The notes beneath the pieces were generated by a model, which was given only the letters and a program-made list of their open reading frames with translations, was not told the origin of the DNA and searched no databases. Made by a program: the position numbers and the translations under genes. This document shows, piece after piece, positions 377-64,000 of a DNA stretch of 64,000 bases. Origin of the DNA: Flexivirga endophytica (GTDB lineage: Bacteria > Actinomycetota > Actinomycetes > Actinomycetales > Dermatophilaceae); the NCBI RefSeq assembly GCF_014640635.1, contig NZ_BMHI01000004.1, forward strand, positions 124,001 to 188,000. The letters are read 5' to 3'. Position 1 is the stretch's first letter; each line of letters starts with the position of its first letter.

Positions 377-1690
377 ATGATCGGTGATCAATCCGTGCTG
401 GATGGTGTCCCGGTCGCGGAGCCGGGGCGGGGGCCGGAAGTGCTTGCCGGGTTGCAGGCGGCGGAGCAGGTGTTGGACGAGGTCCCCGGTGCGGTGCATC
501 AACTGGGGCAGGGCCAGGAAGCCGAGCTGGTGACAACGCTTTTGCGGTTGCTGGGCCGGTCCGCGCAGGTCGTGACGTTGGTGGCTTCGGATGCGGTGAC
601 TCGTGGCGTGCTGGTTGGTTCCGATGCTGCGACCACGGCGCAGTGGTTGGGCGGGCAGGTCCGCGATGTCCCGGTGGAACCGCGGACGGTGCGGGTGGTG
701 GCGTCGGTGGCTGATGCGTGCCGGGACCGGAAGAACACTGTCATCACGGCCGCGTTGCGGGAGGGTTCGTGTTCGGTGGAGTCGGCGCGGACTGCGTTGA
801 CGCAGGCCGACAAGGTGGCACCGGTGATTCCGACCGCGGAGCGTGAGGAGATTCTGGGTTGGTACCTGCAGCTGGACCCGGCCCTCGGGTGTGCGGGGTT
901 GACGCAGTTGACGCGGCAGATCATCGCCCGGTTCGACCCGGACAAACTCTCTAAGGGCGACGAGAAGCTGGAGCGGACTGAGTCGTTGACCTGGTCGACG
1001 ACCCCGACGGGGATGACGCGGTTGGTGGCGGAGTTGTCGCCGGCGAACGCGGCGATCCTCAAGGACGCGATCAACGCCAAGTCCGCACCCGACCCCGCGA
1101 AACCCGCCGATGGTGGTCCAGTAGCGGCGGAGGTGCGGGACGAGCGGTCCCCGGGCAAACGACGCCCGGACGCGCTCCTCGACCTCATCGGTGCCGGCGC
1201 CCGGGCCGCGACCGGGGAAGGCACCCAATCCAGTGCGGCAACAGTGCTGTTGACGATGGGGTTGGAGGCCCTCGCCCAGGGTGTGGGTGCGGCGTCCACG
1301 ACCACCGGTGACACGGTCGACGCGGGTGCTGCTCGCCGGTTCGCGTGCACCGCGGACCTGATCCCGGCCGTGCTCGGCGGACCCAGCGCACCGTTGGATG
1401 TGGGCCGGCGAGAACGGTTGGCCACTAAGGCGATCCGGGCCGCGGTGATCCTGCGCGATGGCGGGTGCAGCTTCCCCGGTTGTGACCGGCCACCGGGTTT
1501 CTGCGAAGTGCACCATGTCCGGCCGTGGTGGGCCGGCGGCGAAACCTCCCTGGCCAACTCGGCCATGCTGTGCGGCCGGCATCATCAGACCGTGCACCGC
1601 AAGGGCTACACCGCCGACATACAACCCGACCGCGTGCACTGGGACCTCACACCCGGCCTGATGCCCGGCCACCGGACCGCAGCGGCCTGA
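377..1690 (+). CDS. DUF222 / HNH endonuclease domain protein (13E12-repeat family)
   Basis: Predicted 437-aa protein of the large actinobacterial family that joins an N-terminal DUF222 region to a C-terminal HNH nuclease domain. The HNH part lies at about residues 355-415: CSFPGC, then the first His pair in EVHHVRPW, then LCGRHHQTVH, matching the Cys/His pattern of HNH nucleases. I chose the ATG at 377 because GGGGAAGGGG precedes it at good spacing; the frame is open further upstream to an ATG at 290. Members occur in many copies per genome in this phylum and their role is unclear. I see no flanking repeat or insertion boundary, so mobility cannot be claimed from the window. Confidence 0.85.
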   Translation: MIGDQSVLDGVPVAEPGRGPEVLAGLQAAEQVLDEVPGAVHQLGQGQEAELVTTLLRLLGRSAQVVTLVASDAVTRGVLVGSDAATTAQWLGGQVRDVPVEPRTVRVVASVADACRDRKNTVITAALREGSCSVESARTALTQADKVAPVIPTAEREEILGWYLQLDPALGCAGLTQLTRQIIARFDPDKLSKGDEKLERTESLTWSTTPTGMTRLVAELSPANAAILKDAINAKSAPDPAKPADGGPVAAEVRDERSPGKRRPDALLDLIGAGARAATGEGTQSSAATVLLTMGLEALAQGVGAASTTTGDTVDAGAARRFACTADLIPAVLGGPSAPLDVGRRERLATKAIRAAVILRDGGCSFPGCDRPPGFCEVHHVRPWWAGGETSLANSAMLCGRHHQTVHRKGYTADIQPDRVHWDLTPGLMPGHRTAAA

Positions 1691-1795
1691 ACCTGCGAAT
1701 CGGCAACTCCGCGAACAGGATTCGCGTGCTTAGGTCAATCTCCTTGTCGCGATAGAGGATTCGCCATGGACGCGGTCGTGTGGCCGCTGGGCAAT

Positions 1796-2446
1796 TCACC
1801 GCGTCGCCACTGCCGTGTTGATAGCTGGCAGGAGAGTTCGGTAACCGGCGCCACTGACGTGCACGCCGTCCCGAGCGAATGCTTTCTCGCCAAGGGGCTC
1901 CAGGAGCTGGTCCGCCTGATGACCCGGACACAGCAAGCCCGACAGACGTCGAGGGCAGTGGCGCGGTACTGGTCGATGGTCGCGTTCGCCCAGGTCGTGC
2001 CCGGCGGCACGCGAGCCTCGACCACTCCCGGCGGCGCGACGTAGGTCACGGCGGCGGCGTTCAGCCGGCCCAGGACGCGCGCCAACTCGTCAGTGAAGCC
2101 CTCGAGGTCGACGCTTCGCCACGGCGCGGCGTCGTTCGTCCCGATCGACAGCACGATGCTCGTCGGGTCTTCGACGTCGATACCGGTCAGTTGAGCCGAC
2201 AGGTCGAAGACTGTCGAACCGCCAACGGCCAGGTTGCAGACGGCCGCGTCGATGGCACGGAGCGACCGTCGCACGCGGGCGAGGTGACTGTCCCCGACGA
2301 AGAGGACGTCTGCTGCGGCAACAGTGGAAAGTGCTCGAGTTGATGTCTCTCGCGGTCTCTTCGGCACGGACACGCTGCCACGATCCCAGAGACCAGTTGC
2401 CGTCGCCCGGAAAGAGATCGTTGTCGAGCGCCTTGCTCGCAGCCAC
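1796..2446 (-). pseudogene. SGNH/GDSL-family hydrolase, apparently frameshifted
   Basis: Three blocks of an SGNH hydrolase are present on the minus strand: block I GDSH near 2295, a GTND block near 2140, and the catalytic D-x-x-H block as DGVHVSGAGY near 1850-1875. The last block is not in the frame of the first two. The frame carrying GDSH and GTND runs past about 1917-1926 into a poor, Ser/Arg-rich sequence, while the adjacent frame supplies a canonical ending (EKAFARDGVHVSGAGY...TAVATR, stop at 1796-1798). A second shift is likely near 2340-2350, because the frame with good third-position GC upstream (starting GTG 2446) differs from the GDSH frame. Either the gene is decayed or the assembly has indels here. 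The function would be a small esterase or lipase-like enzyme. Confidence 0.75.
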
Positions 2447-2506
2447 ATCGGAGCATCCGACCGCAATCGGGACGAGTCAGGAACACGCTTTGCCAGGATG
2501 TCCACC

Positions 2507-2842
2507 ATGACGACCCTCCGCTCCCTGGCTCTGTTCGTTGTGGCGGCTTTCGCTGAGATCGGCGGAGCGTGGCTGATCTGGCAAGGAGTACGTGAACACC
2601 GAGGCTGGGTCTGGATCGGAGCCGGTGTCGCGGCACTAGGAATCTACGGCTTCGTTGCGACCCTGCAACCCGATGCGACATTCGGACGCATCCTCGCTGC
2701 CTACGGCGGCGTCTTCGTCGCAGGTTCGCTTGCCTGGGGCATGGTCGCCGATGGTTACCGCCCCGACCGGTGGGACGTCGCGGGCGCTCTCATCTGTATT
2801 TGCGGGATGGCCCTCATCATGTACGCACCACGCGGGACGTGA
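2507..2842 (+). CDS. YnfA/UPF0060 family small membrane protein
   Basis: Predicted 111-aa integral membrane protein with about four hydrophobic segments. It begins [20 protein letters not shown] and contains the conserved [11 protein letters not shown] and AAYGGVF-type stretches of the UPF0060 (YnfA) family, whose usual length is 107-112 aa. The ATG at 2507 was preferred over 2498 because AGGA lies about 9 nt upstream and the length then fits the family. YnfA proteins resemble small multidrug-resistance transporters; the substrate here is unknown. The gene is followed after 27 bp by the M20 peptidase gene on the same strand. Confidence 0.85.
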
Positions 2843-2869
2843 GCGGCTCCGAAGTGGGAACCTTCCAAG

Positions 2870-4156: not shown

Positions 4157-4182
4157 CGGGTAACAAACGCGGGAAGAGCCGC

Positions 4183-4188
4183 TATTCT
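4183..4188 (+). promoter_or_regulatory. -10 hexamer TATTCT, leaderless-type promoter
   Basis: TATTCT ends 8 nt before the ATG at 4197 and no Shine-Dalgarno sequence is present, so the transcript probably starts at or next to the start codon. A GGTAAC (4159-4164) lies just upstream in the same 40-bp gap. Confidence 0.4.
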
Positions 4189-4196
4189 CTGCGGCC

Positions 4197-6260: not shown

Positions 6261-6346
6261 TGAGGTTACCCGCGAGTTATATTTGGGTGCTCGCAACCGT
6301 AAGGACACCGCGACGACAGCCGACCTCAACCCCGGGAGCCGACCAC

Positions 6347-17532: not shown

Positions 17533-20500
17533 CGGACGCCGACACGCAGCCGAGGGAGCGCGCGCCGCTGGGCCGTGCCGCCGTCGAGCGGCTGCAGTTG
17601 TGGCTGGTCCTCGCGGTGCTGGTCGTGTTGCCGTGGCTGATCTCGCCCGGGCGGACCCAGCCGGACACGAAGATCGACCTCACCCTGTCACCGTGGCGTT
17701 ACCTCGGGCGCTCGCTGGACGCCTGGAACACCCATGCCGGGCTCGGCGAGTTGCAGAATCAGGCCTACGGCTACCTCTTCCCGATGGGGCCGATCTTCGG
17801 CGTATGCCGGTCCCTGGACGTCCCCGCCTGGGCGACTCAGCGGGTCTGGTGGACAGTGTTGCTGGTCGTGTCGTTCCTCGGCGCCCAGCAGCTGCTGCGC
17901 CGGCTCGGGGTGGCGGGAGCGGTGCCCGCGCTGGTCGGCGGGGCGGCATACGCGCTGGCTCCGCGGATGCTCACCGTGCTACCGGTCATCTCGGTCGAGG
18001 CCTGGCCGATGGCGCTCGCTCCCTGGCTCGTGATCGCGGTGCTGCCGCTGGTGCGCCGTGAGTTGCCCCGTGCCGAGCTGATCCGGGCCCTGTCGCTCGC
18101 CGGGGTGTTGACGGCCGCGCTCGGCGGGGTCAACGCGACCGCGTCGGGGATCGTGCTGGCACTGCCCTTCGCGTTCCTGCTGACGCACCCGATCGGACGA
18201 CGCCGGCTGCTGCCCTGGCTGGGTGCGGTGCTGCTCGGCGCACTGTGGTGGCTGCTGCCACTGCTGGTGCTGGGCAAGTACGCCTACCCGTTCCTGGACT
18301 ACATCGAGACGTCGTCGATCACGACCGCCGTCACGTCTGTGCCGAACGTGCTGCGCGGCGCCGACGACTGGATCGCCTACATCCTGGACAGCGCGGATCA
18401 CCCCGTCTGGCAAGGCGGTTGGGTGCTTGCGCAGTCCGTCACGGCGATCCTTGCGACCGGGCTCGTTGCTGCGATCGGCTGTTGGGGCCTGCTACGGCAG
18501 CGCGGGCACCTGGGGCGCTGGACGCTGCTGTGCGCGGTCGGCGCCACGCTCTTCATGGTGCTCGGTCACGGTGGAACGGTCGGCAGCCCGTTGTCGGAGA
18601 CGGTCCGCGGACTGCTCGACGGCTCACTCGCACCGTTGCGCAACATCCACAAGGCAGACCCCGTGCTGCGCCTGCCGCTGGTGATCGGCTTCACCGCGGT
18701 CCTGCAACGGGTCACCGTGTCGCGGCGGGAGCGTGACCGCTTCGTGCCGGTGCTGCTCGCCCTCTCGGTCGCGCTCGCGGCAACACCGATCTGGCAGGGG
18801 CGCGTCGGTGCGTCGGACGCGTATGGCGCCATACCCACGCAATGGACGCAGGTGGCGCACGAGATCGACCGAGCGGCAAAGGAGTCCGGCGGCTCGACGA
18901 TGCTGCTGCCCAACTCCCGCACCCCCACCTACACCTGGGGCAGCACCACCGACGAACCGCTGTCGGCTCTGGCCACCTCATCGGTGGTGACCCGGGAGGC
19001 GGCACCACTGGGGATCCCGGGGTCGACGCGGATCCTGGACGTCGCGGACGAGCTGGCGGCGTCGGGGGAGTCGCAGCCGAGCCTGGCCGCCGGACTGGCG
19101 CGACTGGGGATCACCAGGGTCGTGCTCCGCCGCGACCTGGCGACCTCGGTGAAGGCCCAGCCGTGGCGCAAGGTGCAGCAGACGCTGAGTCGGTCGCCCG
19201 GCTTCCGGGTCGCCGCCACCTACGGCACCGGTCGCTCCGCGCTCACCGTGTATGACGTGACGGTCGCGTCGGACACGGGAGCATCCCTCTACGGTGCGAC
19301 ACCGGTCACCGTCGCGGGCGGTCCGGAGTCGCTCTTCGACCTGTACACCGCCGGGCTGCTGTCCGCGCAGCAGTGGATGCGACTGGATCCGAGGCCGTCC
19401 GGCGACGCGGCTGTTGTCACCGACACAATGCCCTGGCGCGCCTACAACAACGGCGTACCGACGGCCTTCGCCTACGGCCCGGTGCTGACCCGTGGCGACG
19501 ACACCCCGACGCACATCGGAGCGAAGGACCTGCTGCCGGCGGGTGACCCGGCACAGCAACCCGCGCGTGAGTGGATCGGCTGGAGTGGCCTCGCCGTGTC
19601 CTCATCGGCGGCGGATCCGTTCGCGCAGCACTACCTCGGCGTGCACGACGGGCCGGCGTCGGCCTTCGACGGCGACGTCACCACGGCCTGGCTGGCCGGC
19701 GACCACGAAGCGACGGCATCGCTCACCGGGGTGTTGCCCGGCCGAGAGGTCTCGACACTTCGACTGCACCTCGCCGGCCGCAAGCAGCACGCCACGCTGC
19801 CGTCCCACGTGCGGGTGCAGGTGGGGGACCGCAGCATCTCGATTGCCGTGCGTGGACGCACCGAGCTGACGCTGCCGGTGCCGGCGACTCGTGCGGGCAC
19901 GGTGTCCGTGCAGCTGACCGCACCGCCCGATGCGGTCGACCCGGTGTTGGGCATCGTCGAATTGCGTGTCGACGGAACCAAACTGGGATCGGTCATCGAC
20001 GTGCCACAGCAGGTCGACCTCACACACCAGGCACTGCTGCTGCACCGGCTCCCCGAGGACGGCGCAACCATCACCCGGCAGGTGCACATCACCGCGAGTG
20101 GGTCGATGCCGGCGACCGTGTGGCTGCGCTCCTCCGGTGGCTCGGTGTCGGCTTCGTGCGGTGCTGCCGGTGAGATCACCGTGCGTGCAACCGATGGCAA
20201 GACTCAGCGGATTCCGTTGCGGCTCAAGGACTCCGGACCGGCCGCCGAGGGCGAGCTCGTCGAAGCGACCACCTGCAAAGCACGCTGGTCGAGTAGGGCG
20301 AGGAACGAGCCCGTATCGAGACCGAGTGCGGCTGTCATCAGCATCGCCGGAAAGCCGGGCCTCACACCGCAACTCGCGACGTTCGGCACGCGCCCGACAG
20401 TGTCCGCCGCCGAACGCGCTGTCACGTCCGTCAGCGGCGACTCCGGCGAGCGCGTCGTCCGGATCGGCGCCGGTGCCCCAGGGGTCGTCGCGTTGAGCGA

Positions 20501-21167
20501 AGGCTTCAACGCCGGCTGGCACGCGACCGCCGGTTCCGGCCGTTCACTGCAACCGGTCGAGGTCGACGGCTGGCGGCAGGGCTTCCGCGTGACCAGCAAG
20601 GACGCCGACACGATCACGCTGCGCTTCATTCCGACCACACCGCAGCGGCTCGGACTGCTGGGCGGCGGGCTCGTCGCAATCGCACTGCTGCTGACGTTCC
20701 TGGCAGCGGCATACGTATGCCGAAGAACTGGGCACACTTCGACTTCCCGAATGACGGCTCTCTCGGCGAATGACGGTGCAATCAAGCCGTCACTCGCCGA
20801 GAGAGCCGTCATTCGGCCAAGAAGGGCGATGCCTGGCCCGGGCAGCGGAGCGGTGGGAGCCGCTGCAGCGGTGCTCGTCGGGTTCCTGGCCGCCGGACCG
20901 GCAGGGCTGATCGCGGGTCTCGTCGTCGCGGCGGTGCCGGTGCGCTGGTTGCGCCATACAGCCGGCGGCGCAATGGTCGCCGCTGCGATCGCGCTGGCGT
21001 TCTTCGGGGTGGTCGACGCGCAGTCGACCGGAGCCGTCGCGGGTCAGCTGCTCGGCACGGTCACACTGAGCGCGCTGGCACGCGCGGGGTGTGTGTTCGG
21101 CGGTGCGCCCAGCGCAGCACCGGACGCTCCAGCAGCGACGCCGACGCCCACGCGAGCAGCACGCTGA
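17529..21167 (+). CDS. AftD-like alpha-(1->3)-arabinofuranosyltransferase
   Basis: 1212 aa. The first periplasmic loop has DTKIDLTLSPWRYLGRSLD and then NQAYGYLFPMGP, close to the conserved start of mycobacterial AftD. About 11-13 spans form the GT-C core. The extracytoplasmic region follows, with a discoidin-like module (FDGDVTTAWLAGDHE near residue 715), and then C-terminal spans. It is clearly closer to AftD than the gene at 6347. Two short palindromic elements lie in frame: 20287-20323 adds an Arg/Ser-rich loop near residues 920-932, and 20747-20816 adds about 25 residues near 1075-1097. Both stretches look unlike the surrounding protein. The 3' end overlaps the convergent acyltransferase gene by 107 bp. 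Start ATG 17529 overlaps the methyltransferase stop. Confidence 0.85.
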   Translation: MTDADTQPRERAPLGRAAVERLQLWLVLAVLVVLPWLISPGRTQPDTKIDLTLSPWRYLGRSLDAWNTHAGLGELQNQAYGYLFPMGPIFGVCRSLDVPAWATQRVWWTVLLVVSFLGAQQLLRRLGVAGAVPALVGGAAYALAPRMLTVLPVISVEAWPMALAPWLVIAVLPLVRRELPRAELIRALSLAGVLTAALGGVNATASGIVLALPFAFLLTHPIGRRRLLPWLGAVLLGALWWLLPLLVLGKYAYPFLDYIETSSITTAVTSVPNVLRGADDWIAYILDSADHPVWQGGWVLAQSVTAILATGLVAAIGCWGLLRQRGHLGRWTLLCAVGATLFMVLGHGGTVGSPLSETVRGLLDGSLAPLRNIHKADPVLRLPLVIGFTAVLQRVTVSRRERDRFVPVLLALSVALAATPIWQGRVGASDAYGAIPTQWTQVAHEIDRAAKESGGSTMLLPNSRTPTYTWGSTTDEPLSALATSSVVTREAAPLGIPGSTRILDVADELAASGESQPSLAAGLARLGITRVVLRRDLATSVKAQPWRKVQQTLSRSPGFRVAATYGTGRSALTVYDVTVASDTGASLYGATPVTVAGGPESLFDLYTAGLLSAQQWMRLDPRPSGDAAVVTDTMPWRAYNNGVPTAFAYGPVLTRGDDTPTHIGAKDLLPAGDPAQQPAREWIGWSGLAVSSSAADPFAQHYLGVHDGPASAFDGDVTTAWLAGDHEATASLTGVLPGREVSTLRLHLAGRKQHATLPSHVRVQVGDRSISIAVRGRTELTLPVPATRAGTVSVQLTAPPDAVDPVLGIVELRVDGTKLGSVIDVPQQVDLTHQALLLHRLPEDGATITRQVHITASGSMPATVWLRSSGGSVSASCGAAGEITVRATDGKTQRIPLRLKDSGPAAEGELVEATTCKARWSSRARNEPVSRPSAAVISIAGKPGLTPQLATFGTRPTVSAAERAVTSVSGDSGERVVRIGAGAPGVVALSEGFNAGWHATAGSGRSLQPVEVDGWRQGFRVTSKDADTITLRFIPTTPQRLGLLGGGLVAIALLLTFLAAAYVCRRTGHTSTSRMTALSANDGAIKPSLAERAVIRPRRAMPGPGSGAVGAAAAVLVGFLAAGPAGLIAGLVVAAVPVRWLRHTAGGAMVAAAIALAFFGVVDAQSTGAVAGQLLGTVTLSALARAGCVFGGAPSAAPDAPAATPTPTRAAR
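20287..20323. repeat. Short interspersed element GGTCGAGTAG...TATCGAGACC inside the AftD-like gene
   Basis: A 37-bp block beginning GGTCGAGTAG and ending GTATCGAGACC, with a GAGGAACGAGC centre. It resembles the GGTCTCGATA...CTACTCGACC repeats scattered through many actinobacterial genomes. It keeps the reading frame and encodes a run of Arg, Ser and Pro. A diverged relative lies at 38914-38959. Confidence 0.7.
20747..20816. repeat. 30-bp-arm palindrome inside the AftD-like gene
   Basis: Arms at 20747-20776 and 20787-20816 are exact reverse complements except at one position, with a 10-base loop (TGCAATCAAG). Each arm contains TGACGG twice and a CTCTCGGCGA core. The element is in frame and codes for a polar stretch between hydrophobic segments. 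A related copy lies at 25753-25820. Confidence 0.85.
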
Positions 21168-24659: not shown

Positions 24660-25733
24660 GTGCGGAAATCCGCGATCGTGATCGGATTTGGCGCGTTCTT
24701 CGTGACCATGGCGCTCCTGCTGAAGTTCTATGCGTTCGACAGGTTGGCCGTCATTCCGGCAGACCAGAACACCAAGCAGGTTGCCGTTGACAAGAACGCC
24801 TACATCTTCGACGCCGGCACCTTGAAGTTCCACCACACGACGCTCACCACCACGGTCGGCGCGGTGGCGCAGAAGGACGCGAGCGACAAGTTCGGCCACA
24901 ACTCGGTCATCTTCAGCAAGTGGCAGTACTCCACGATCCCGCAGACCAAGACGCCGCAGACCGCGTCGACGGAGAAGTTCGCGGTCGACCGGCACACCGG
25001 CAAGATCATCAAGTGGAGCGGTGACGAGGAGAACGGCAAGGCCATCGAGCACAAGGGCTACACCGTCAAGTTCCCGTTCGGCGCCAAGAAGACGACGTAT
25101 CCCTACTGGGACGCGAACATCAAGAAGACCATGAACATGAAGTACGCCGGGACCGACAAGCTCGACGGCCTCGAGGTCTACCGCTACGAAGGCACTGTCC
25201 CGCGGCAGACGCTGGCGACCCAGCCGACGAAGGACACCCCCGGCTTCCTGTTCGGCGGCGCCAAGAGCAGCCCCGGCGTCAAGGCCGACTACACCTACTC
25301 CAACGACCGCAAGATCTGGGTCGAGCCGAAGACCGGTGCGTTCATCAAGGTGAGCGAGGGTCAGAAGCAGTGGTTGACCGACCCGAAGACCGACAAGTCG
25401 GTGCAGGTGCTGCAGACGACCTCGGTGTTCGACAAGGCGACCGTGAAGGCCAACGTCGACGAATACAAGGGCAAGGCGTCGCAGCTAAAGGCTCTGAAGA
25501 TCGCTCCCTGGGCGCTGGGCATCCTCGGCGTTCTGCTGCTCGTCGGCGGCGCCGTGATGGCCGCGCTGATCGCTCGCCGCAACAGCGGCGACGAGCAGTA
25601 CGACGGTGACGACTACTACGAGGACGACAACCGGGACGACGAGACCCAGGCCGGCGTCGCCGGGCTGCTGGGCGACGACGACTCGACCCAGCCGACCTCG
25701 CGCAGTGCGAGGCGCCTGGACAACGAGTCCTGA
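24660..25733 (+). CDS. DUF3068 domain protein (porin PorA-like family), membrane anchored
   Basis: 357-aa protein with an N-terminal membrane segment (residues about 4-22, AIVIGFGAFFVTMALLLKF), a large exported domain rich in Lys/Thr/Asp (about 30-275), a second span (about 280-302) and a very acidic cytoplasmic tail. DUF3068 proteins are widespread in Actinobacteria and of unknown function. The GTG start at 24660 has GGAGG about 8 nt upstream. The gene follows the heptose module after a 63-bp gap containing GGTTAC (24609-24614), so it has its own promoter. It contains no GTATGNC site, unlike most neighbours. Confidence 0.75.
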   Translation: MRKSAIVIGFGAFFVTMALLLKFYAFDRLAVIPADQNTKQVAVDKNAYIFDAGTLKFHHTTLTTTVGAVAQKDASDKFGHNSVIFSKWQYSTIPQTKTPQTASTEKFAVDRHTGKIIKWSGDEENGKAIEHKGYTVKFPFGAKKTTYPYWDANIKKTMNMKYAGTDKLDGLEVYRYEGTVPRQTLATQPTKDTPGFLFGGAKSSPGVKADYTYSNDRKIWVEPKTGAFIKVSEGQKQWLTDPKTDKSVQVLQTTSVFDKATVKANVDEYKGKASQLKALKIAPWALGILGVLLLVGGAVMAALIARRNSGDEQYDGDDYYEDDNRDDETQAGVAGLLGDDDSTQPTSRSARRLDNES

Positions 25734-26801: not shown

Positions 26802-28298
26802 ATGACTGCCACCACCACCTCCCAGGTCGCGATCAACGACATCGGATCCGAGGAGGAGCTGCTCGCCGCCATCGACGCGACGATCAAGCACTTCAATGAC
26901 GGCGACATCGTTGACGGTGTCATCGTCAAGGTCGACCGGGACGAAGTCCTCCTCGACATCGGCTACAAGACCGAGGGCGTCATCCCCTCGCGAGAGCTGT
27001 CCATCAAGCACGACGTCGACCCGAATGAGGTCGTGGCGGTCGGCGATGAGGTCGAAGCCCTCGTTCTCCAGAAGGAGGACAAGGAAGGCCGCCTCATCCT
27101 GTCCAAGAAGCGCGCACAGTACGAGCGCGCCTGGGGGACCATCGAGACCATCAAGGAAGAGGACGGCGTCGTCACCGGCACCGTCATCGAGGTCGTCAAG
27201 GGCGGCCTCATCCTGGACATCGGCCTGCGCGGCTTCCTGCCGGCATCGCTGGTCGAGATGCGTCGGGTCCGCGACCTCCAGCCGTACGTCGGCAAGGAGA
27301 TCGAGGCCAAGATCATCGAGCTCGACAAGAACCGCAACAACGTGGTCCTGTCGCGTCGCGCGTGGCTCGAGCAGACTCAGTCGGAGGTCCGCACGACCTT
27401 CCTCAAGGAGCTGCAGAAGGGTCAGGTCCGCACGGGTGTCGTCAGCAGCATCGTCAACTTCGGTGCGTTCGTCGACCTCGGTGGCGTCGACGGTCTGGTG
27501 CACGTCTCCGAGCTGTCCTGGAAGCACATCGACCACCCGTCCGAGGTCGTCGAGGTCGGCGACGAGGTCACCGTCGAGGTGCTGGACGTCGACATGGACC
27601 GCGAGCGCGTCTCGCTGTCGCTGAAGGCGACCCAGGAAGACCCGTGGCAGCACTTCGCTCGCACCCACGCCATCGGCCAGGTCGTGCCGGGCAAGGTCAC
27701 CAAGCTGGTGCCGTTCGGTGCGTTCGTCCGTGTCGAGGACGGCATCGAGGGTCTGGTCCACATCTCCGAGTTGGCCGAGCGCCACGTGGAGCTGCCGGAG
27801 CAGGTTGTCCAGGTCGGCCAGGAGATCTTCGTCAAGGTCATCGACATCGACCTCGAGCGTCGCCGCATCTCGCTGAGCCTCAAGCAGGCCAACGACGAGG
27901 CCGCAGCCGCGACCGAGTTCGACCCGACGCTCTACGGCATGGCCGCGGAGTACGACGAGCAGGGCAACTACAAGTACCCCGAGGGCTTCGACCCCGAGTC
28001 GGGCGAGTGGCTCGAGGGCTACGAGACCCAGCGCGAGGTCTGGGAGAAGCAGTACGCCGAGGCGCACTCCCGCTACGAGGCGCACCAGGCGCAGATCGAG
28101 CAGGCACGCAAGGACGACGCGGAGGCTGCCGCCACCGCTGCGACCTCCGGTTCGACCTCCTACTCCTCGGAGTCGTCGGACAACGCTCCGGCCTCGTCGC
28201 CCGCTCAGTCGGCTTCGCCGGCTGCAGCACCGGCCGAGGGCACGCTCGCCTCGGACGAGGCGCTCGCCGCCCTGCGCGAGAAGCTCACCGGCAACTGA
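26802..28298 (+). CDS. rpsA: 30S ribosomal protein S1
   Basis: 498-aa protein with four S1 RNA-binding repeats, at about residues 35-105, 122-190, 207-277 and 294-363. Repeats 3 and 4 are near-canonical (VVSSIVNFGAFVDLGGVDGL and VTKLVPFGAFVRVEDGIEGL). The C-terminal tail is acidic then Ser/Ala-rich, as in other actinobacterial S1 proteins. S1 binds mRNA at the 30S platform and helps initiate translation. Codon use is strongly biased to C-ending codons, as expected for high expression, and no GTATGNC site occurs in the gene. It ends at a strong terminator. Confidence 0.95.
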   Translation: MTATTTSQVAINDIGSEEELLAAIDATIKHFNDGDIVDGVIVKVDRDEVLLDIGYKTEGVIPSRELSIKHDVDPNEVVAVGDEVEALVLQKEDKEGRLILSKKRAQYERAWGTIETIKEEDGVVTGTVIEVVKGGLILDIGLRGFLPASLVEMRRVRDLQPYVGKEIEAKIIELDKNRNNVVLSRRAWLEQTQSEVRTTFLKELQKGQVRTGVVSSIVNFGAFVDLGGVDGLVHVSELSWKHIDHPSEVVEVGDEVTVEVLDVDMDRERVSLSLKATQEDPWQHFARTHAIGQVVPGKVTKLVPFGAFVRVEDGIEGLVHISELAERHVELPEQVVQVGQEIFVKVIDIDLERRRISLSLKQANDEAAAATEFDPTLYGMAAEYDEQGNYKYPEGFDPESGEWLEGYETQREVWEKQYAEAHSRYEAHQAQIEQARKDDAEAAATAATSGSTSYSSESSDNAPASSPAQSASPAAAPAEGTLASDEALAALREKLTGN

Positions 28299-31396: not shown

Positions 31397-32356
31397 GTGA
31401 CCGCATCTTCCGACGCCTCCTCGGTGGCGCCGCGATCCGGTCCGTCGGCTCCGGTGGGGCCGCCACCACGGCGCAGTGGCCGTCCGTACGGCGAGTGGCT
31501 GCTCGCCGCGGGCCTGTTGCTGCCCAACCTGGTGCTGCTGGTGATCTTCACCTACCGGCCGCTCGTGGACAACTTCCGCCTCTCGTTCACCGACTGGAAC
31601 ATCGCAGCCCCCGTCGCGCACTACATCGGTTTCGAGAACTACAAGACGTGGTGGCACGACCCCAACTCGCACGAGGTACTGCGCAACACCCTCATCTTCA
31701 CCGTGTGCGCGGTCGGCATCTCGATGGTGCTCGGTCTGGCGCTGGCGATCCTCCTGGACCAGAAGCTGCGCGGCCGCAACCTGGTGCGGTCGGCGATCTT
31801 CGCGCCGTTCGTGATCTCCGGTGCGGCGGTCGGCATCGCGTTCCAGTTCGTCTTCGATCCCAACTTCGGCATGCTGCGCGACCTGTTCCATCGCATCGGG
31901 ATCCAGGTGCCGGACTTCTATCAGCGGCCGGGATGGGCACTGGTGATGGTGACCACGACCTACGTCTGGAAGAACCTCGGCTACACCTTCGTGATCTATC
32001 TGGCCGCCCTGCAGGGACGCCGGGCCGACCTCGACGAGGCTGCGGAGATCGACGGTGCGTCCGCGTGGCGGCGGTTCCACAAGGTGCTGCTTCCGCAGCT
32101 GCGGCCGACGACGTTCTTCCTGTCGATCACCGTGCTGCTCAACTCGGTCCAGGTCTTCGACATCATCAACGTGGAGACCAGGGGAGGCCCGCAGGGGTAT
32201 GGCACGACGACACTCGTCTATCAGGTCTACCGGGAGACCTTTGTCAACAGCAAGGCCGGGTATGGCGCGACGATCGCCACCATCATGTTCGTGATCCTGT
32301 TGATCATCACGGTGATCCAGGTCCGGGTCATGGATCGAGGGATGCACCGTGACTGA
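31397..32356 (+). CDS. Carbohydrate ABC transporter permease (MalF/UgpA type)
   Basis: 319-aa inner-membrane permease with six spans. It has the family EAA loop EAAEIDGASAWRRFHKVLLPQL (about residues 212-233), which docks on the ATPase. The N-terminus is a Pro/Ser-rich cytoplasmic stretch before the first span. The GTG at 31397 is the first good start. It overlaps the second permease gene by 8 bp. Upstream (31287-31328) are two GTAAC and one GTTAC pentamers. Together with the next three genes it forms a binding-protein-dependent sugar importer; the sugar is not identifiable. Confidence 0.88.
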   Translation: MTASSDASSVAPRSGPSAPVGPPPRRSGRPYGEWLLAAGLLLPNLVLLVIFTYRPLVDNFRLSFTDWNIAAPVAHYIGFENYKTWWHDPNSHEVLRNTLIFTVCAVGISMVLGLALAILLDQKLRGRNLVRSAIFAPFVISGAAVGIAFQFVFDPNFGMLRDLFHRIGIQVPDFYQRPGWALVMVTTTYVWKNLGYTFVIYLAALQGRRADLDEAAEIDGASAWRRFHKVLLPQLRPTTFFLSITVLLNSVQVFDIINVETRGGPQGYGTTTLVYQVYRETFVNSKAGYGATIATIMFVILLIITVIQVRVMDRGMHRD

Positions 32357-33251
32357 CACAGCAGCGGTGACCGGGTTCGACTCGGACGAGAAACCGACCG
32401 GCGCGCACAACGCGGAGGCCGCCAGTTTCGGTGGCACCGGGATGAAGATCGCCGGCTACGTGGGCATGGTGCTGGTCTTCCTGGTGGTGGCGGGTCCACT
32501 TTTCTGGATCGTGGTGACCTCCGTCAAGGAGCGACCGGACATCTACACCCAGCCCGCTCAGTGGTGGCCGGCACACCCGACGTCGGACGGCTACCACTCG
32601 GCCACGACCGCGATCCCGTTCTGGGACTACTTCCGCAACTCGGTGATCATCACCGCGATCCTGTCGATCGCCAAGATCGTGCTGGGCGTGATGAGCGCCT
32701 ATGCGCTGTCGCTGATGCGTTTCCCGGGGCGGAACCTGCTGTTCGTGGTCATCATCGCCGCGTTGATGGTGCCGAACCAGATCACCGTCATCTCCAACTA
32801 CGCGCTGGTCAGCCAACTCGGCTGGCGCAACACCTATCAGGGCATCATCATCCCGCTGGCCGGTGTCGCCTTCGGGACATTCCTGATGCGCAACCAGTTC
32901 CTCTCGGTGCCGGGCGAGATCATCGAAGCGGCTCGCCTGGACGGAGCCGGGCCGCTGAAACTGCTCTGGCGGGTCGTGCTGCCGATGTCCTGGCCGACCT
33001 TGATCGCGTTCTCGATCATCACCGTCGTCAACGAATGGAACGAGTACCTCTGGCCGTTCCTGATGTCCGACGACAGTCGCAGTGGCACCTTGCCGATCGG
33101 GTTGACCCACCTGCAGAACAACGACGGCATCACCAACTGGGGTCCGGTGATGGCGGCCACCGTGCTGGCGATGTTGCCGGTGCTCATCGTGTTCCTCGCA
33201 CTGCAACGTCACATGATCAAGGGCCTGACCGCCGGTGCGGTCAAGGGCTGA
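32349..33251 (+). CDS. Carbohydrate ABC transporter permease (MalG/UgpE type)
   Basis: 300-aa permease with six spans after a roughly 30-residue polar start. The EAA loop is IIEAARLDGAGPLKLLWRVVLPM (about residues 193-215). NEWNEYLWPFL near residue 223 and the closing QRHMIKGLTAGAVKG are typical of MalG-type sugar permeases. It partners with the MalF-type permease to form the channel. Translation is probably coupled to the upstream gene (8-bp overlap) and it is followed after 22 bp by the binding-protein gene. Confidence 0.88.
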   Translation: MTDTAAVTGFDSDEKPTGAHNAEAASFGGTGMKIAGYVGMVLVFLVVAGPLFWIVVTSVKERPDIYTQPAQWWPAHPTSDGYHSATTAIPFWDYFRNSVIITAILSIAKIVLGVMSAYALSLMRFPGRNLLFVVIIAALMVPNQITVISNYALVSQLGWRNTYQGIIIPLAGVAFGTFLMRNQFLSVPGEIIEAARLDGAGPLKLLWRVVLPMSWPTLIAFSIITVVNEWNEYLWPFLMSDDSRSGTLPIGLTHLQNNDGITNWGPVMAATVLAMLPVLIVFLALQRHMIKGLTAGAVKG

Positions 33252-33273
33252 ACTTCGAAGAAGGAGCAATCAC

Positions 33274-34590
33274 ATGTCTGGTTTGACTCGCCGCGGGTTC
33301 CTCGGCGCAGCAGGAGGCGCCGTGGCCGCGACCGGCCTGGCAGCCTGCGCCGGGACCGGCTCGGACTCGTCCGGCAAGGGCGGTAAGGGCGGCGGTGAAT
33401 CAAACACCATCGACTTCTGGAGCAACCACCCGGGCACGTCGACCGCCACCGAGAAGAAGATCATCGCGGAGTTCGAGAAGAAGTACCCCGACCTGAAGGT
33501 GAAGCTCACCGACGCGGGCAAGGACTACGAAGAGGTCGGGCAGAAGTTCAACGCGGCCCTGGCCGGTGGCAACCTGCCGGACGTGATCGTGGCCTCCGAC
33601 GTGACGTGGTTCAACTTCGCGCTGAACAACCGGTTCACGGACATCGACGCGCTCTTCAAGAAGGAGGGCCTGTCGACGGACGACTACGTCGAGGGCCTGT
33701 ACGGCGACTATGAGTACCAGGGCAAGCACTACGCGATTCCCTACGCCCGCTCGACGGTCCTCTTCTACTACAACAAGGACGCCTTCAAGAAGGCCGGCCT
33801 GCCGGACCGCTCGCCGAAGTCCTGGGACGAGTTCACCCAGTGGGCACCGAAGCTGCAGGCGGCCATGGGCGGCGGCAAGCACGCACTGATCCTGGACGAC
33901 GGTGCGGATTACCTGGACTGGACCTTCCAGTCCATCGCGTGGTCGTACGGCGGAGGCTATTCCAAGGGTTGGAAGACAACGTTCAGCGACCCGAAGACGA
34001 TCAAGGCCGCCACGGTGCTGTCGGACTGGGGCAAGAAGGGCTGGGTGAAGACGTCCGCCGATTCCGCGAGCGACTTCGGTGCGGGTCTCGGTGGAGTTCT
34101 GCTGGAGTCGACCGGTGACCTCGGCGGCTTCAAGGAGCTGCCGTTCGAGTTGGGCGTCGGTTTCGTGCCTGCTCCGGGTGGCGTGAAGTGCTGCCCGACG
34201 GGTGGCGCGGGTCTGGCGATTCCGGAGGGGCTCTCGGCGAAGCGGAAGGCGAATGCCGCGAAGTTCCTGGAGTTCCTGACCAATGCCCAGAGCACGGTGA
34301 CCTTCACCCAGGCGACCGGTTACATGCCGGTGCGCAAGTCGGCACTGAAACTCCCCGCCGAGGTGGCATACCTGAAGAAGAACCCGAACTTCAAGGTCGC
34401 CGTCGATCAACTCCCCAAGACACGGCCGCAGGACAACGCCCGCGTCTTCGTGCCCGGTGGCGGCGCGACGATCGGCCAGGCCCTGGACAAGATCATCGCC
34501 GGCGCGAACGTCGAGTCGACGATGAAGGGACTCGACAAGACCATCACCAAGGCGTACGAGTCGCAGGTGAAGCCGAAGCTCAAGGCCTGA
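33274..34590 (+). CDS. ABC transporter sugar-binding lipoprotein
   Basis: 438-aa extracellular solute-binding protein (family 1). The N-terminus MSGLTRRGFLGAAGGAVAAT has a twin-arginine motif followed by the lipobox LAAC (Cys about residue 28), so it is probably Tat-exported and lipid-anchored. The mature part starts with a Gly/Ser/Lys linker and then NTIDFWSNHPGTSTATEKKI, typical of maltose/glycerol-3-phosphate-type binding proteins. RBS GAAGGAG lies 7 nt before the ATG. A hairpin follows the gene and may keep its mRNA level above that of the ATPase. Confidence 0.9.
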   Translation: MSGLTRRGFLGAAGGAVAATGLAACAGTGSDSSGKGGKGGGESNTIDFWSNHPGTSTATEKKIIAEFEKKYPDLKVKLTDAGKDYEEVGQKFNAALAGGNLPDVIVASDVTWFNFALNNRFTDIDALFKKEGLSTDDYVEGLYGDYEYQGKHYAIPYARSTVLFYYNKDAFKKAGLPDRSPKSWDEFTQWAPKLQAAMGGGKHALILDDGADYLDWTFQSIAWSYGGGYSKGWKTTFSDPKTIKAATVLSDWGKKGWVKTSADSASDFGAGLGGVLLESTGDLGGFKELPFELGVGFVPAPGGVKCCPTGGAGLAIPEGLSAKRKANAAKFLEFLTNAQSTVTFTQATGYMPVRKSALKLPAEVAYLKKNPNFKVAVDQLPKTRPQDNARVFVPGGGATIGQALDKIIAGANVESTMKGLDKTITKAYESQVKPKLKA

Positions 34591-34629
34591 CCATGAAGTG
34601 TGATTTCGAACGGACACAGCGAGCTGAGG

Positions 34630-34674
34630 CTGCGTTGGTAGGGCGGCAGCTTGCTGACGCGCCTGCCAACGCAG
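34630..34674 (+). promoter_or_regulatory. Intergenic hairpin between binding-protein and ATPase genes
   Basis: CTGCGTTGGTAGG (34630-34642) pairs with CCTGCCAACGCAG (34662-34674), with one mismatch and a 19-base loop. There is no T run, so it is more likely an mRNA-stabilising or attenuating structure than a full terminator, as in other binding-protein operons. Confidence 0.55.
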
Positions 34675-34683
34675 AATAAGCCG

Positions 34684-35763
34684 ATGGCATCGGTGTATTT
34701 CGACGCCGCGACCCGGCGGCACAAGGGAAACTCGGAGCCCTCGGTGGACAGCGTCACGCTGGACATCGAGGACGGCGAATTCCTCGTGCTCGTCGGGCCG
34801 TCGGGCTGCGGGAAGTCGACGACGCTGCGCATGCTGGCCGGTCTGGAGCCGGTCGACGAGGGCCGGATCCTGATCAATGGACACGATCAGAAGGGCGTGC
34901 GCCCGCGCGACCGTGACGTGGCGATGGTGTTCCAGAGCTACGCGCTCTACCCCAACATGTCGGCGGAGGAGAACATGGCGTTCGCCCTGCGCAACGCGGG
35001 GGTGAGCAAGGCCGACGCCCATGCACGGGTGATGGAGGCGGCGCAGATCCTCGAGTTGGAGAAGCTGCTCAAGCGCAAGCCGGGTCAGCTCTCCGGTGGC
35101 CAGCGGCAACGCGTGGCCATGGGGCGCGCCATCGTGCGCAATCCGAAGGTCTTCTGCATGGACGAACCGTTGTCCAACTTGGACGCCAAACTGCGTGTGT
35201 CGACCCGCGCCCAGATCGCGGCGCTCCAGCGACGGCTCGGTGTGACGACGGTCTACGTCACGCACGACCAGACCGAGGCAATGACGATGGGACACCGGGT
35301 CGCAGTGTTGCGGGACGGCGTCCTGCAACAGGTGGACACTCCGGAGGCGCTCTACGACCACCCGGTCAACACCTTCGTCGCGGGTTTCATCGGCTCGCCG
35401 GCGATCAACCTCATCGACGCGACGGTGCAGGACGGACGGGCCGAGTTCTTCGGTGCCGCAATACCGTTGGAGCGCGACAAGCTCGGAGCGGCGGAGCGGG
35501 TGACGGTCGGCATACGACCCGAGTCCTGGACGATCGGCGACTCACTCGCCAAGAACGGCGTGGCGCTCAAGGTGGAGTTGGTCGAGTCCCTCGGCGCAGA
35601 GGTGTTCGTCTATGGCAAGCCGGAGGCTGCCGGCGAGGACGGTCCGCGGCTGACCGTGCGCACGGACAAGAAGCATCGGCCGCGCGATGGTGAGATCGTG
35701 CGGGTGACGCCGGCAACGGAGGAGGTCCACGTCTTCGACGCGGGCTCCGGCGCCCGGCTCTGA
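34684..35763 (+). CDS. Carbohydrate ABC transporter ATP-binding protein (UgpC/MsmK type)
   Basis: 359-aa ATPase. Walker A is GPSGCGKST (about residues 38-46), the Q-loop is VFQSYALYPNMS, the signature is LSGGQRQRVAMGRA (about 136-149), Walker B is CMDEPLSNLD, and the switch His is in VTHDQTEAM. A C-terminal TOBE-type regulatory domain follows (about 240-359). These ATPases energise MalFG-type permeases. The ATG at 34684 gives the usual MASVYFD start. The gene lies 93 bp after the binding-protein gene behind a hairpin. Confidence 0.92.
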   Translation: MASVYFDAATRRHKGNSEPSVDSVTLDIEDGEFLVLVGPSGCGKSTTLRMLAGLEPVDEGRILINGHDQKGVRPRDRDVAMVFQSYALYPNMSAEENMAFALRNAGVSKADAHARVMEAAQILELEKLLKRKPGQLSGGQRQRVAMGRAIVRNPKVFCMDEPLSNLDAKLRVSTRAQIAALQRRLGVTTVYVTHDQTEAMTMGHRVAVLRDGVLQQVDTPEALYDHPVNTFVAGFIGSPAINLIDATVQDGRAEFFGAAIPLERDKLGAAERVTVGIRPESWTIGDSLAKNGVALKVELVESLGAEVFVYGKPEAAGEDGPRLTVRTDKKHRPRDGEIVRVTPATEEVHVFDAGSGARL

Positions 35764-53171: not shown

Positions 53172-54437
53172 ATGACTCAGCTTTCCGGTGCGCTCAAGCA
53201 GGCGACCCCCGTGCTCGCGACGCACGGCAAGGGCGTCAATCTGTATGACGAAGCCGGCCGCCGCTATCTGGATTTCACCGCGGGGATCGGCGTGACCAGC
53301 ACAGGCCACTGCCATCCGAAGGTCGTCGCGGCGGCTCAGGAGCAGGTCGGCAAACTGATCCACGCGCAATACACGACGGTGATGCATCAGCCGCTGCTGA
53401 CCTTGACCGAGCGGCTCGGCGAGGTGCTGCCGAGCGGCCTGGACCGGCTCTTCTTCGCAAACTCCGGCTCCGAAGCGGTCGAGGCGGCACTGCGGCTGGC
53501 CCGGCAGGCGACGGGGCGACCCAACATCGTGGTCTTCCACGGCGGCTTCCACGGGCGGACGGTGGCGACCGCGTCGCTGACGACCTCGCACACCCGCTAC
53601 AGCGCTGGTTTCGCGCCGTTGATGGCCGGGGTGCACGTCTCGCCGTTCCCCAACCCGACCTACTACGGCTGGAGCGTGGAGCAGGCGACCGAGTTCGCGC
53701 TCAAGGAGCTCGACCACACGTTGCAGACGCTCAGCCAACCCAACGAGACCGCGGCGTTCCTGGTCGAACCCGTCCTCGGCGAGGGCGGTTACGTGCCCGG
53801 CAACACCGAGTTCTTCGCCGGCCTGCGCGATCGCGCCGACAAGTACGGCATCCTGCTCGTCTTCGACGAGGTGCAGACCGGTTGGGGCCGGACCGGCAAG
53901 TTCTGGGCGCAGGAGCACTTCGCGGTCACTCCGGACATCCTGGTCACCGCCAAGGGCATCGGCTCCGGTTTCCCGCTCTCGGGCATCGCCGCACCGGCGG
54001 CCCTGATGGAGAAGGTCTGGCCCGGTTCACAGGGCGGAACGTATGGCGCCAACGCCGTGGCATGCGCCGCGGCCATCGCGACACTCGACGTCATACAGGA
54101 GGAGAAACTGGTCGACAACGCGGCCGAGCGTGGTGCCCAGTTGACCGACGCGCTACGCGCCACCGCGAGCAAGTATGACGCCATACACGACGTCCGCGGC
54201 CTCGGTCTCATGATCGGAAACGAATTCAGAGACGCCGACGGTAATCCCGATGGGGCGACGGCCGGCGCGGTACAAAGGGAAGCGGCCGACCGCGGCCTGC
54301 TGCTGCTCAACTGTGGTCCGTGGGGCGAGGTCGTGAGGTTCATTCCCGCGCTCGTGGTGAACGACAAGGAGGTGGACGAGGCAGCTGCGCTGTGGGCGGA
54401 GTCGGTGAACGCCGTGCTGCAGGGTGGGACGAGCTAA
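53172..54437 (+). CDS. Class III aminotransferase (4-aminobutyrate/diaminobutyrate type)
   Basis: 421-aa PLP enzyme. FTAGIGVTSTGHCHPKVV, NSGSEAVEAALRLARQATG (about residues 97-115), VFDEVQTGWGRTGKFWA (PLP Asp) and VTAKGIGSGFPLSGI (Schiff-base Lys, about 260) are standard for GabT and related enzymes. Paired with the divergent aldehyde dehydrogenase it can convert GABA to succinate, or diaminobutyrate to aspartate (the DoeD/DoeC step). Shared operator control with the ectoine-hydrolase-like operon favours the second. RBS AGGAGAAAG lies about 6 nt before the ATG. Confidence 0.88.
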   Translation: MTQLSGALKQATPVLATHGKGVNLYDEAGRRYLDFTAGIGVTSTGHCHPKVVAAAQEQVGKLIHAQYTTVMHQPLLTLTERLGEVLPSGLDRLFFANSGSEAVEAALRLARQATGRPNIVVFHGGFHGRTVATASLTTSHTRYSAGFAPLMAGVHVSPFPNPTYYGWSVEQATEFALKELDHTLQTLSQPNETAAFLVEPVLGEGGYVPGNTEFFAGLRDRADKYGILLVFDEVQTGWGRTGKFWAQEHFAVTPDILVTAKGIGSGFPLSGIAAPAALMEKVWPGSQGGTYGANAVACAAAIATLDVIQEEKLVDNAAERGAQLTDALRATASKYDAIHDVRGLGLMIGNEFRDADGNPDGATAGAVQREAADRGLLLLNCGPWGEVVRFIPALVVNDKEVDEAAALWAESVNAVLQGGTS

Positions 54438-59555: not shown

Positions 59556-59562
59556 TGTCGTC

Positions 59563-62500: not shown

Positions 62501-62718
62501 AGTCGGCTGCGCCGAAGGTCACTACCAAGAGGGCGGCCACGAAGAAGCCCGCCACGAAGAAGGTCGCGGCCACGAAGACGGCCGCGACCACGAAGACGGC
62601 CGCCAAGACGCCGGGGCGGACACGCACGGCCGCTGCGGCGGTCAAGTCGCCGAAGCCGGCCGCGGTCGCCAAGGCCACCCGCAGCGGGACGGTCAAGCGG
62701 GGAGCGGGGTCGAAGTAG
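59563..62718 (+). CDS. uvrA: UvrABC system protein A, excinuclease ATPase, with Lys/Ala-rich C-terminal tail
   Basis: 1051 aa. Two ABC ATPase modules: Walker [15 protein letters not shown] (first) and [14 protein letters not shown] (second), with signatures [14 protein letters not shown] and [14 protein letters not shown]. Zinc-binding Cys pairs are visible (CPVCG and CEACSGDG, then CEVCHG). UvrA dimers find DNA damage and load UvrB. The last 90 or so residues are unusual: Lys-Lys-Pro-Ala-Thr repeats ([19 protein letters not shown]) like the tail of histone H1 or HupB. GTG 59563 was chosen for the leaderless promoter and family N-terminus; TTG 59533 would add 10 residues. Confidence 0.95.
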
Positions 62719-62821
62719 CCGGCCTTCGTTCGATGGGGTGCACTGCGGCCGCGTACGACTGCACAGCATCTGCACAGGTCCTGGTCATCTATTGACCTTT
62801 CAATTACTGCATCCTGGTGGC

Positions 62822-63322: not shown

Positions 63323-63359
63323 GCGCACCCGCAGCGACCGTAGTCCGGCTCTGCTTGAC

Positions 63360-63433
63360 GTGATTTTGGGACGACGGTCGTTCGGTCCGTGTGGGTTGTG
63401 GCGTCATGCGTGTGATTTAGGGACGACGGTCGT
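63360..63433. repeat. Direct repeat pair with 52-bp period
   Basis: GTGATTTTGGGACGACGGTCGT (63360-63381, first 20 bases diagnostic) recurs with one mismatch at 63412-63433. The repeat period is 52 bp, the same as in the array at 45061-45186, and both contain CGACNGTCGT. The rest of the 181-bp gap 63323-63503 shows no gene. Confidence 0.75.
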
Positions 63434-63491
63434 CACGAAGTGCCGGCGCGGTACGCGACCGGTGCTGTTCGGGACTGTCCGACGCACTCCA

Positions 63492-63497
63492 TAGAGT
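63492..63497 (+). promoter_or_regulatory. -10 hexamer TAGAGT, leaderless-type promoter of uvrC
   Basis: TAGAGT ends 6 nt before the GTG at 63504; the GGAG in between is too close to serve as a ribosome-binding site. Confidence 0.5.
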
Positions 63498-63503
63498 GGA
63501 GTC

Positions 63504-64000
63504 GTGGCTGATCCGTCGACCTACCGCCCGAAGCCGGGGGAGATCCCGGTCGATCCGGGTGTCTACAAATTCCGGGACAAGGACCGCCGGGTCATCTACG
63601 TCGGCAAGGCCAAGTCGCTGCGCAGCCGGTTGTCGTCATACTTCCAGGACATCGCGGCATTGCATCCGCGCACCCGGACGATGGTGACGACCGGCGCGAG
63701 CGTCGAATGGACCGTCGTGCGCAACGAGGTCGAAGCGCTGCAACTCGAATACTCCTGGATCAAGGAGTTCGATCCGCGCTTCAACGTCAAGTACCGCGAC
63801 GACAAGTCCTATCCCTACCTCGCGGTGACGATGGGCGAGGAGTTCCCCCGGGCGCAGGTCATGCGCGGCACCAAGCGCAAGGGCACCCGCTACTTCGGTC
63901 CCTACGCGCACGCCTGGGCCATCCGCGAGACCCTCGACCAGTTGTTGCGGGTCTTTCCGGTGCGCACCTGCAGCAGCGGAGTCTTCAAGCGGGCCGGCCA
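63504..64000 (+). CDS. uvrC: UvrABC system protein C (5' part; runs off the window)
   Basis: 165 residues are visible. [19 protein letters not shown] and [18 protein letters not shown] form the start of the GIY-YIG nuclease domain (residues about 12-46; the motif is GVY...VIYVGKA), which makes the 3' incision. [20 protein letters not shown] and VFPVRTC follow as in all UvrC proteins. The UVR, RNase H-like and HhH domains lie beyond the window. GTG 63504 gives the standard [15 protein letters not shown] start. Confidence 0.95.

What the first reader, a model, noticed from the sequence alone, without database searches (positions are those of the whole stretch)
1615..63643. Strongly over-represented heptamer GTATGNC across the whole window
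Reading both strands I found about 106 GTATGNC/GNCATAC sites in 64 kb, about one per 600 bp. An independent-base model at roughly 72% GC predicts about 16. The NC extension is near-obligatory (about 106 of 114 GTATG). Sites occur in all codon frames and both orientations about equally (51 against 55), so codon preference does not explain them. They account for most ATA isoleucine codons, which are otherwise rare. They avoid rpsA and the DUF3068 gene. This looks like a DNA-level signal, comparable to uptake sequences or HIP1: a candidate for a methylase, a nucleoid protein, an uptake or a repair motif. Counts are by eye and may be off by a few.
Basis: seen in the sequence. Interest (0 to 1): 0.75.

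Follow-up and report, generated by a model that had tools for sequence, protein, structure and literature searches.

The report
Genome-wide strand-read DNA signal, GTAYGNCG
An actinobacterium and many of its relatives carry an eight-letter DNA word thousands of times, written in about half of the places their proteins allow and spaced separately along each DNA strand, as if some unknown machine reads it.

Summary
The true word is the octamer GTATGNCG: 105 copies in the window, 8,019 in the 4.72 Mb genome (reversed word 1,249). The genus is Flexivirga. The word is enriched in all six coding frames (650 seen, 77 after synonymous shuffling) and as dense between genes. In the sampled genes it fills 46% of the places the protein would permit, against 0.6% in sampled relatives lacking it.
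Of 186 family genomes, 107 carry at least 800 copies. Ten others carry 3,371 to 8,819 copies of GTACGNCG instead, a one-base "dialect". Some genera and single species have neither, so the signal was switched and lost repeatedly. The longest motif-free stretches sampled hold integrase, transposase or exopolysaccharide genes.
New here: sites suppress neighbours within about 400 bp only in the same orientation, so consecutive sites alternate (960 opposite, 596 same). One of three C-dialect genomes tested did not show the interference. There is no regional strand skew.
This suggests a polar signal read one strand at a time. I favour a Chi-like DNA-processing signal, weakly. DNA uptake and a one-strand mark remain open. 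comEA and comEC do not track it, nor do three methyltransferase families. The reader protein is unknown.

The parts
1615..63641 (.). Span holding 105 GTATGNCG octamers (51 on +, 54 on -), about one per 610 bp
   Evidence: heptamer list
18821..18834 (.). Two sites overlapping head-to-head, GTATGGCGCCATAC
54173..54186 (.). Two sites overlapping head-to-head, GTATGACGCCATAC
20707..20722 (.). Two sites abutting back-to-back, CGGCATAC then GTATGCCG
26802..28298 (+). Ribosomal protein S1-type gene (rpsA): no site
   Evidence: PF00575, four stretches, E 1.5e-83; 0 sites
24660..25733 (+). PorA-family (PF11271) gene: no site
   Evidence: E 7.1e-70; 0 sites
32260..35508 (+). Longest motif-free stretch of the window (3,248 bp), over ABC transporter genes (permease, solute-binding protein, ATPase)

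Best explanation
GTAYGNCG is a polar, genome-wide self-signal. A sequence-specific DNA-processing protein reads it in one orientation only, so each strand needs its own copy every few hundred bases. Shown: real, restricted to the family among the genomes surveyed for the T form, two one-base dialects, use of about half of the permitted positions in G000, whole-site conservation, rarity in foreign-looking islands, interference mainly between sites of the same orientation, and no regional strand skew. Selection or biased recombination keeps one copy per strand within reach.
For: Interference is orientation-specific. Logit odds ratios for occupancy with a same-orientation site within 400 bp are 0.45 (G000), 0.43 (G307), 0.58 (G244), 0.33 (G251+G192), 0.32 (four Flexivirga relatives) and 0.50 (C-dialect G232+G150). 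Opposite neighbours give 1.42, 1.29, 1.10, 1.56, 0.96 and 1.37. Consecutive sites in 864 kb of G000: 960 opposite, 596 same, p 2.4e-20; G307 254/151. A null that respects coding constraints (300 draws) gives 0.521 opposite (sd 0.014, maximum 0.552) against 0.629 seen in G000, and 0.511 (sd 0.026, maximum 0.592) against 0.588 in G307. 1,222 of 2,648 permitted positions are used in G000, against 5 of 790 in relatives without the motif. No positional skew within genes. Motif-bearing G226 has a RecB and a RecD gene above NCBI cut-offs.
Against: No reader was identified, and no helicase-nuclease gene was compared between dialects or with motif-less species. Known Chi words are G-rich and often skewed along the replichore (recalled); this one is neither. 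Its density, about one per kb on each strand, is far above E. coli Chi (recalled). Loss in single species inside motif-rich genera (G255, G154) is surprising for a core repair signal. In C-dialect G226 the interference is not seen (same OR 0.89, opposite 0.83). Alternation of consecutive sites is not significant in G244 (112/94) or in C-dialect G226 (352/323), G232 (73/64) and G150 (61/49). In G000 occupancy drops again, to 0.36, beyond 2 kb from a same-orientation site (61 positions), and in G244 it does not rise with distance beyond 1 kb.
Confidence: 0.38

Rival explanations
1. DNA uptake sequence: a competence receptor prefers DNA carrying the word, and transformation plus recombination spreads it, as with Neisseria DUS and Pasteurellaceae USS. 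The T and C forms would be uptake dialects.
For: Thousands of copies; dialects following lineages, as in Frye 2013 (PMC3630211, passages); no strand bias; foreign-looking islands poor in it; comEA and comEC present in nearly all genomes. Micrococcus luteus, an actinobacterium, transforms with comEA/comEC and Flp/Tad pili (PMC6370729, passages).
Against: comEC (180 of 186 genomes), comEA (34 of 34; in two or three pieces in G154, G166 and G136) and PF00437 ATPases (185 of 186) occur with and without the motif. The six genomes without a comEC match (G161, G194, G263, G270, G308, G321) all carry the motif, but are fragmented or incomplete assemblies. No one-mismatch form is clearly enriched. Interference depends on orientation, whereas uptake in H. 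influenzae does not (PMC1939737, passages). No enrichment between genes and no gene-end bias, unlike Pasteurellaceae (PMC2346458, first part of three).
Confidence: 0.27
2. One-strand DNA mark: an enzyme modifies one strand at each site and the mark tells strands apart in repair or keeps a heritable state. Because each site marks one strand, both orientations are needed locally. This resembles Elhai's methyl-directed repair model for HIP1.
For: Strand-specific interference and alternation are what a one-strand mark predicts. HIP1 is tied to orphan methylases (PMC4390886, passages).
Against: In a 42-genome panel (18 T, 8 C, 16 motif-less) PF01555 (19), PF00145 (20) and PF07669 (30) do not follow the motif; G251, G256, G309 and G034 have none of the three. 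PF02384, PF02086 and non-methyl modifications were not tested.
Confidence: 0.2
3. Binding site of a nucleoid or chromosome-organising protein.
For: Genome-wide, in coding and intergenic DNA alike; lost and switched as one protein might change.
Against: Spacing is not regular overall (CV 1.13). A double-strand binder gives no reason for interference limited to one orientation.
Confidence: 0.1
4. By-product of codon use, mutation bias or a repair quirk acting at one base.
For: T to C at position 3 is synonymous in the two commonest frames and is the commonest difference between orthologous sites in three of four relatives.
Against: Synonymous shuffles remove it (650 vs 77). Sampled relatives lack it; their G+C is higher (71.5-73.7% against 67.8%), but Metallococcus at 71.3% has it. 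A process at one base cannot raise the sum of both forms five- to tenfold per Mb. Whole coding sites are conserved 4 to 7 times above expectation.
Confidence: 0.02

Closest known systems
DNA uptake sequences (Neisseriaceae DUS, Pasteurellaceae USS)
   Same: Thousands of copies, balanced strands, family-wide, dialects following lineages, foreign DNA poor in them.
   Different: Not enriched between genes, no gene-end bias, mismatched forms not enriched, orientation-specific interference, common competence genes do not track it, and it lies in Actinobacteria.
HIP1 (GCGATCGC) of cyanobacteria
   Same: Extreme over-representation, with other words in place of HIP1 in exceptional genomes (Elhai 2015, passages).
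   Different: Not palindromic, only one base differs between forms, none of three methyltransferase families tested tracks it.
Chi sites of RecBCD/AddAB
   Same: Short asymmetric word that would act in one orientation; a RecB and a RecD gene are present in at least one bearer.
   Different: No strand skew, not G-rich, far denser (recalled), lost in single species; recognition by any enzyme not shown.
KOPS/AIMS chromosome-polarity words
   Same: Short, asymmetric, genome-wide.
   Different: Those are strongly skewed by replichore (recalled); here strand counts in 20 kb pieces show no skew.

Membership tests
DNA uptake sequence (DUS/USS) | Massively over-represented asymmetric word, balanced on both strands | tested here: met
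   8,019 vs 1,249 control; strand heterogeneity chi2 11.0 on 21 df
DNA uptake sequence (DUS/USS) | Raises uptake or transformation by the same species | not testable with these tools
   needs an experiment
DNA uptake sequence (DUS/USS) | Presence follows competence genes | tested here: not met
   comEC 180/186, comEA 34/34, with and without motif; receptor genes are not known, so only the common core was tested
DNA uptake sequence (DUS/USS) | Lineage dialects | tested here: met
   T and C forms; at least 3 changes of the C label on starred branches of a comEA+comEC tree of 30 genomes
DNA uptake sequence (DUS/USS) | Excess outside genes or at gene ends | tested here: not met
   1.90/kb intergenic vs 1.79/kb coding; no bias between gene halves
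HIP1-type word | Palindrome containing the site of an orphan methyltransferase | tested here: not met
   asymmetric; three methyltransferase families do not track; PF02384 and PF02086 untested
Chi site | Acts in one orientation | tested here: inconclusive
   interference mainly in the same orientation, but no activity shown
Chi site | Skewed along the direction of replication | tested here: not met
   no strand heterogeneity among 20 kb pieces of G000 and G226; halves of G226 244/241 and 159/177, p 0.43, origin not located
Chi site | Recognised by RecBCD/AddAB/AdnAB | not testable with these tools
   RecB and RecD genes identified in G226; other genomes were only scanned in fetched pieces with a helicase motif
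KOPS/AIMS | Strong replichore skew | tested here: not met

The most novel reading that the evidence does not exclude
An undescribed class of genome-wide signal: a polar, strand-read word with one-base dialects that flips and disappears within an actinobacterial family. It is driven to about half of all protein-permitted positions in the window's genome, with each strand filled independently at a range of about 400 bp to 1 kb. This would be a strand-wise self-marking system with a dedicated, unknown reader.
Probability: 0.4. Interest if true: 0.92.

Novelty: new variant of a known kind. Interest (0 to 1): 0.8.

Why it matters
Only a few classes of massively repeated short genome words are known (uptake sequences, Chi, HIP, polarity words). 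This one bends thousands of codons across much of an actinobacterial family. It gives natural experiments (dialect switches, clean losses) to find its reader. It also shows strand-specific interference, a measurable property that could separate uptake, Chi and marking models for other genome words.

Tried and rejected
Rejected. Chance and codon use: shuffles. Replication polarity: no strand heterogeneity. CcrM-like, C5 and Eco57I-type methyltransferases as the driver. comEC/comEA/PF00437 ATPase presence as the cause. Type IV pilus ATPase: very strong PF00437 hits (E below 1e-120) in only G193, G228, G320 and G322 (reading these as PilB-like is recalled). Gene-end placement. A repair quirk at one base: the sum of both forms is five- to tenfold per Mb above motif-less species.

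Led nowhere or weak. Overlapping inverted halves in the C dialect looked enriched (120 pairs in G226), but the odds ratio is near 1 (0.79, 1.23 and 0.74 in G226, G150 and G232). A dialect-switch-in-place test for genus g92 has only 20 kb of G228: 7.5 kb aligned, and of four T sites aligned without gaps two read GTACGNCG in G226. The reversed-word control of the genome search is poor for GTACGNCG, since TAC-GNC codons make it common in high-G+C genomes; the unnamed large genomes of family f21 and G524, at about 2 to 4 times the control, were therefore not interpreted. The piece upstream of recB in the G226 locus gave no family match, so recC was not shown. Searches for the motif strings and for related terms found no paper on this motif (0 papers; one search gave 5 papers, one of them opened; one search listed 10 of 112, none on it by title). 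These cover only the open-licence library.

Weak points. Genes were called by a home-made G+C-frame rule, not an annotator. comEA+comEC is a stand-in for a species tree. Family copy-number classes (107 and 10 of 186) were counted by hand from the tables. Genus names other than Flexivirga are not assigned to the handles.
Full report
WHAT WAS CHECKED. The window has 107 GTATGNC against 11.8 expected, and the conserved word is one base longer, GTATGNCG. The window lies in a 4.72 Mb genome. Two members of its genus share contig lengths and coordinates with Flexivirga caeni (403,399 bp) and F. meconopsidis (617,987 bp) loci, so the genus is Flexivirga. The genome has 8,019 octamers, 4,048 and 3,971 on the two strands, against 1,249 of the reversed word.

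NOT CODONS. In 464 kb (348 predicted genes) there are 650 coding sites; 100 synonymous shuffles within genes give 76.6 (sd 7.4). Every frame and orientation is enriched, about 3 to 17 times. Density between genes is 1.90/kb, within genes 1.79/kb. The same test gives ratios of 8.4, 6.0, 4.3 and 4.8 in four other T-form genomes (G307, G244, G251, G192), and 0 to 0.94 (0 to 2 sites each) in four motif-less sets.

WHO HAS IT. In 149 genomes of the order, only members of the own family show the T form: 6 of 10 have more than 1,900 copies, and none of the other 139 has more than 436. In the family, 107 of 186 genomes have at least 800 copies (counted by hand). Ten other genomes, with 68 to 556 T copies, carry 3,371 to 8,819 GTACGNCG instead; codon shuffling confirms excess in the three of them sampled, G226, G150 and G232 (2.7, 3.1, 3.6 times). 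The four other T-form genomes sampled are depleted of the C form (0.09 to 0.53 of shuffles), and G000 is at 0.60. Losses are nested: G255 has 126 T copies while its 30 congeners have over 1,000; G154 has 82 while four congeners have 2,408 to 3,210. In genus g92, G227 is T, G226 is C and G228 is mixed. On a comEA+comEC tree of 30 genomes the C label needs at least 3 changes and the 'none' label at least 4 on starred branches. That tree is a stand-in for a species tree.

HOW STRONGLY IT IS KEPT. In Flexivirga relatives whole coding sites are intact at 37 of 60 (G174), 31 of 74 (G176), 23 of 71 (G175) and 23 of 64 (G173) aligned places; independent bases matched for codon position would give 5.4, 7.5, 5.7 and 5.1. 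A cruder control of 11 similar words, pooled, gives 29-32% against 33-60% for the motif, with no difference in G175. Of all positions in called genes where the amino-acid sequence allows the word, G000 uses 1,222 of 2,648, G307 292 of 659, G244 161 of 478 and G251+G192 89 of 402; motif-less relatives use 5 of 790. No one-mismatch form exceeds 1.8 times expectation in the four other T-form genomes pooled or in G000. There the shuffle expectation for forms that share TAT is inflated by the motif itself.

WHERE IT IS MISSING. The seven longest of 21 gaps over 2.8 kb lie in five fetched pieces, from which 20 ORFs were scanned. In G000: 9.4 kb holding a phage-type integrase, 7.4 kb of 58% G+C with Wzy and glycosyltransferases, and 5.2 kb of exopolysaccharide genes. 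In G226: two pieces with transposases, a resolvase and IstB among other genes. So the word marks resident DNA and seems to be acquired slowly. The other 14 gaps were not examined, except the one in the window (ABC transporter genes).

THE NEW PROPERTY. Consecutive sites tend to have opposite orientation: 960 opposite and 596 same in 864 kb of G000 (p 2.4e-20), 254/151 in G307, 270/161 in four Flexivirga relatives (orthologous to the window, not independent of it). It is not significant in G244 (112/94) or in C-form G226 (352/323), G232 (73/64) and G150 (61/49). Of six control words in 464 kb of G000, none shows an excess of opposite pairs and two show an excess of same pairs. Sampling from protein-permitted positions gives 0.521 opposite (sd 0.014) against 0.629 seen in G000; G307 0.511 (sd 0.026) against 0.588; G244 0.470 (sd 0.038) against 0.531; G251+G192 0.509 (sd 0.051) against 0.575. 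Occupancy of a permitted position in G000 is 0.33-0.40 when a same-orientation site lies within 400 bp and 0.63 when it is 1-2 kb away; beyond 2 kb it is 0.36 (61 positions, possibly islands). Opposite neighbours do not lower it. Same-orientation odds ratios below 0.6 recur in four further T sets and in the C-form set G232+G150, but not in G226 (0.89). Motif-less genomes (GTACGNCG, 1.09) and a control word in G000 (GACTGNCG, 2.0) show no such effect. Strand counts show no heterogeneity among 20 kb pieces and no bias along genes.

MECHANISM. A tag read as double-stranded DNA should saturate regardless of orientation. Independent filling of the two orientations implies a reader that meets one strand or travels in one direction. 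That favours a Chi-like signal or a one-strand mark over a plain uptake tag, although dialects, losses and even strands resemble uptake sequences. G226 carries a RecB and a RecD gene, so a suitable enzyme exists in at least one bearer; nothing ties it to the word. comEC, comEA and PF00437 ATPases occur with and without the motif, and three methyltransferase families do not track it. I commit to a polar, strand-read DNA-processing signal, Chi-like, at 0.38.

LITERATURE. Seen: passages of PMC6370729, PMC3630211, PMC1939737, PMC5217627 and PMC4390886; the first of three parts of PMC2346458; listings otherwise. No paper on this word was found, which cover only the open-licence library. Statements on Chi density, G-richness and skew, and on KOPS, are recalled.

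Noticed in passing
window 6098-10642 and 17274-21167: Two very large AftD-like arabinofuranosyltransferase genes (PF11847), with a PorA/PF11271 gene at 24660-25733.
   Followed up: no
L030:353-9770 (own genome, contig C7): 9.4 kb motif-free island with a phage-type integrase; two of four ORFs scanned have no Pfam match.
   Followed up: partly
Genomes G154 and G255 (L033-L040): Both lack the T form, yet GTACGNCG is still at about half of its shuffle expectation (11/24.5 and 12/21.8), as in T-form relatives; possibly a relic of a lost T-form past.
   Followed up: no
Phylum survey, family f21 and G524: Large genomes (7-10 Mb) show GTAYGNCG at about 2 to 4 times the reversed word; may be codon background or another C-form lineage.
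   Followed up: no
G244 (whole genome; sample L143-L150): This T-form genome has 8 PF01555 and 6 PF07669 matches, the most of the 42 genomes in either panel.
   Followed up: no
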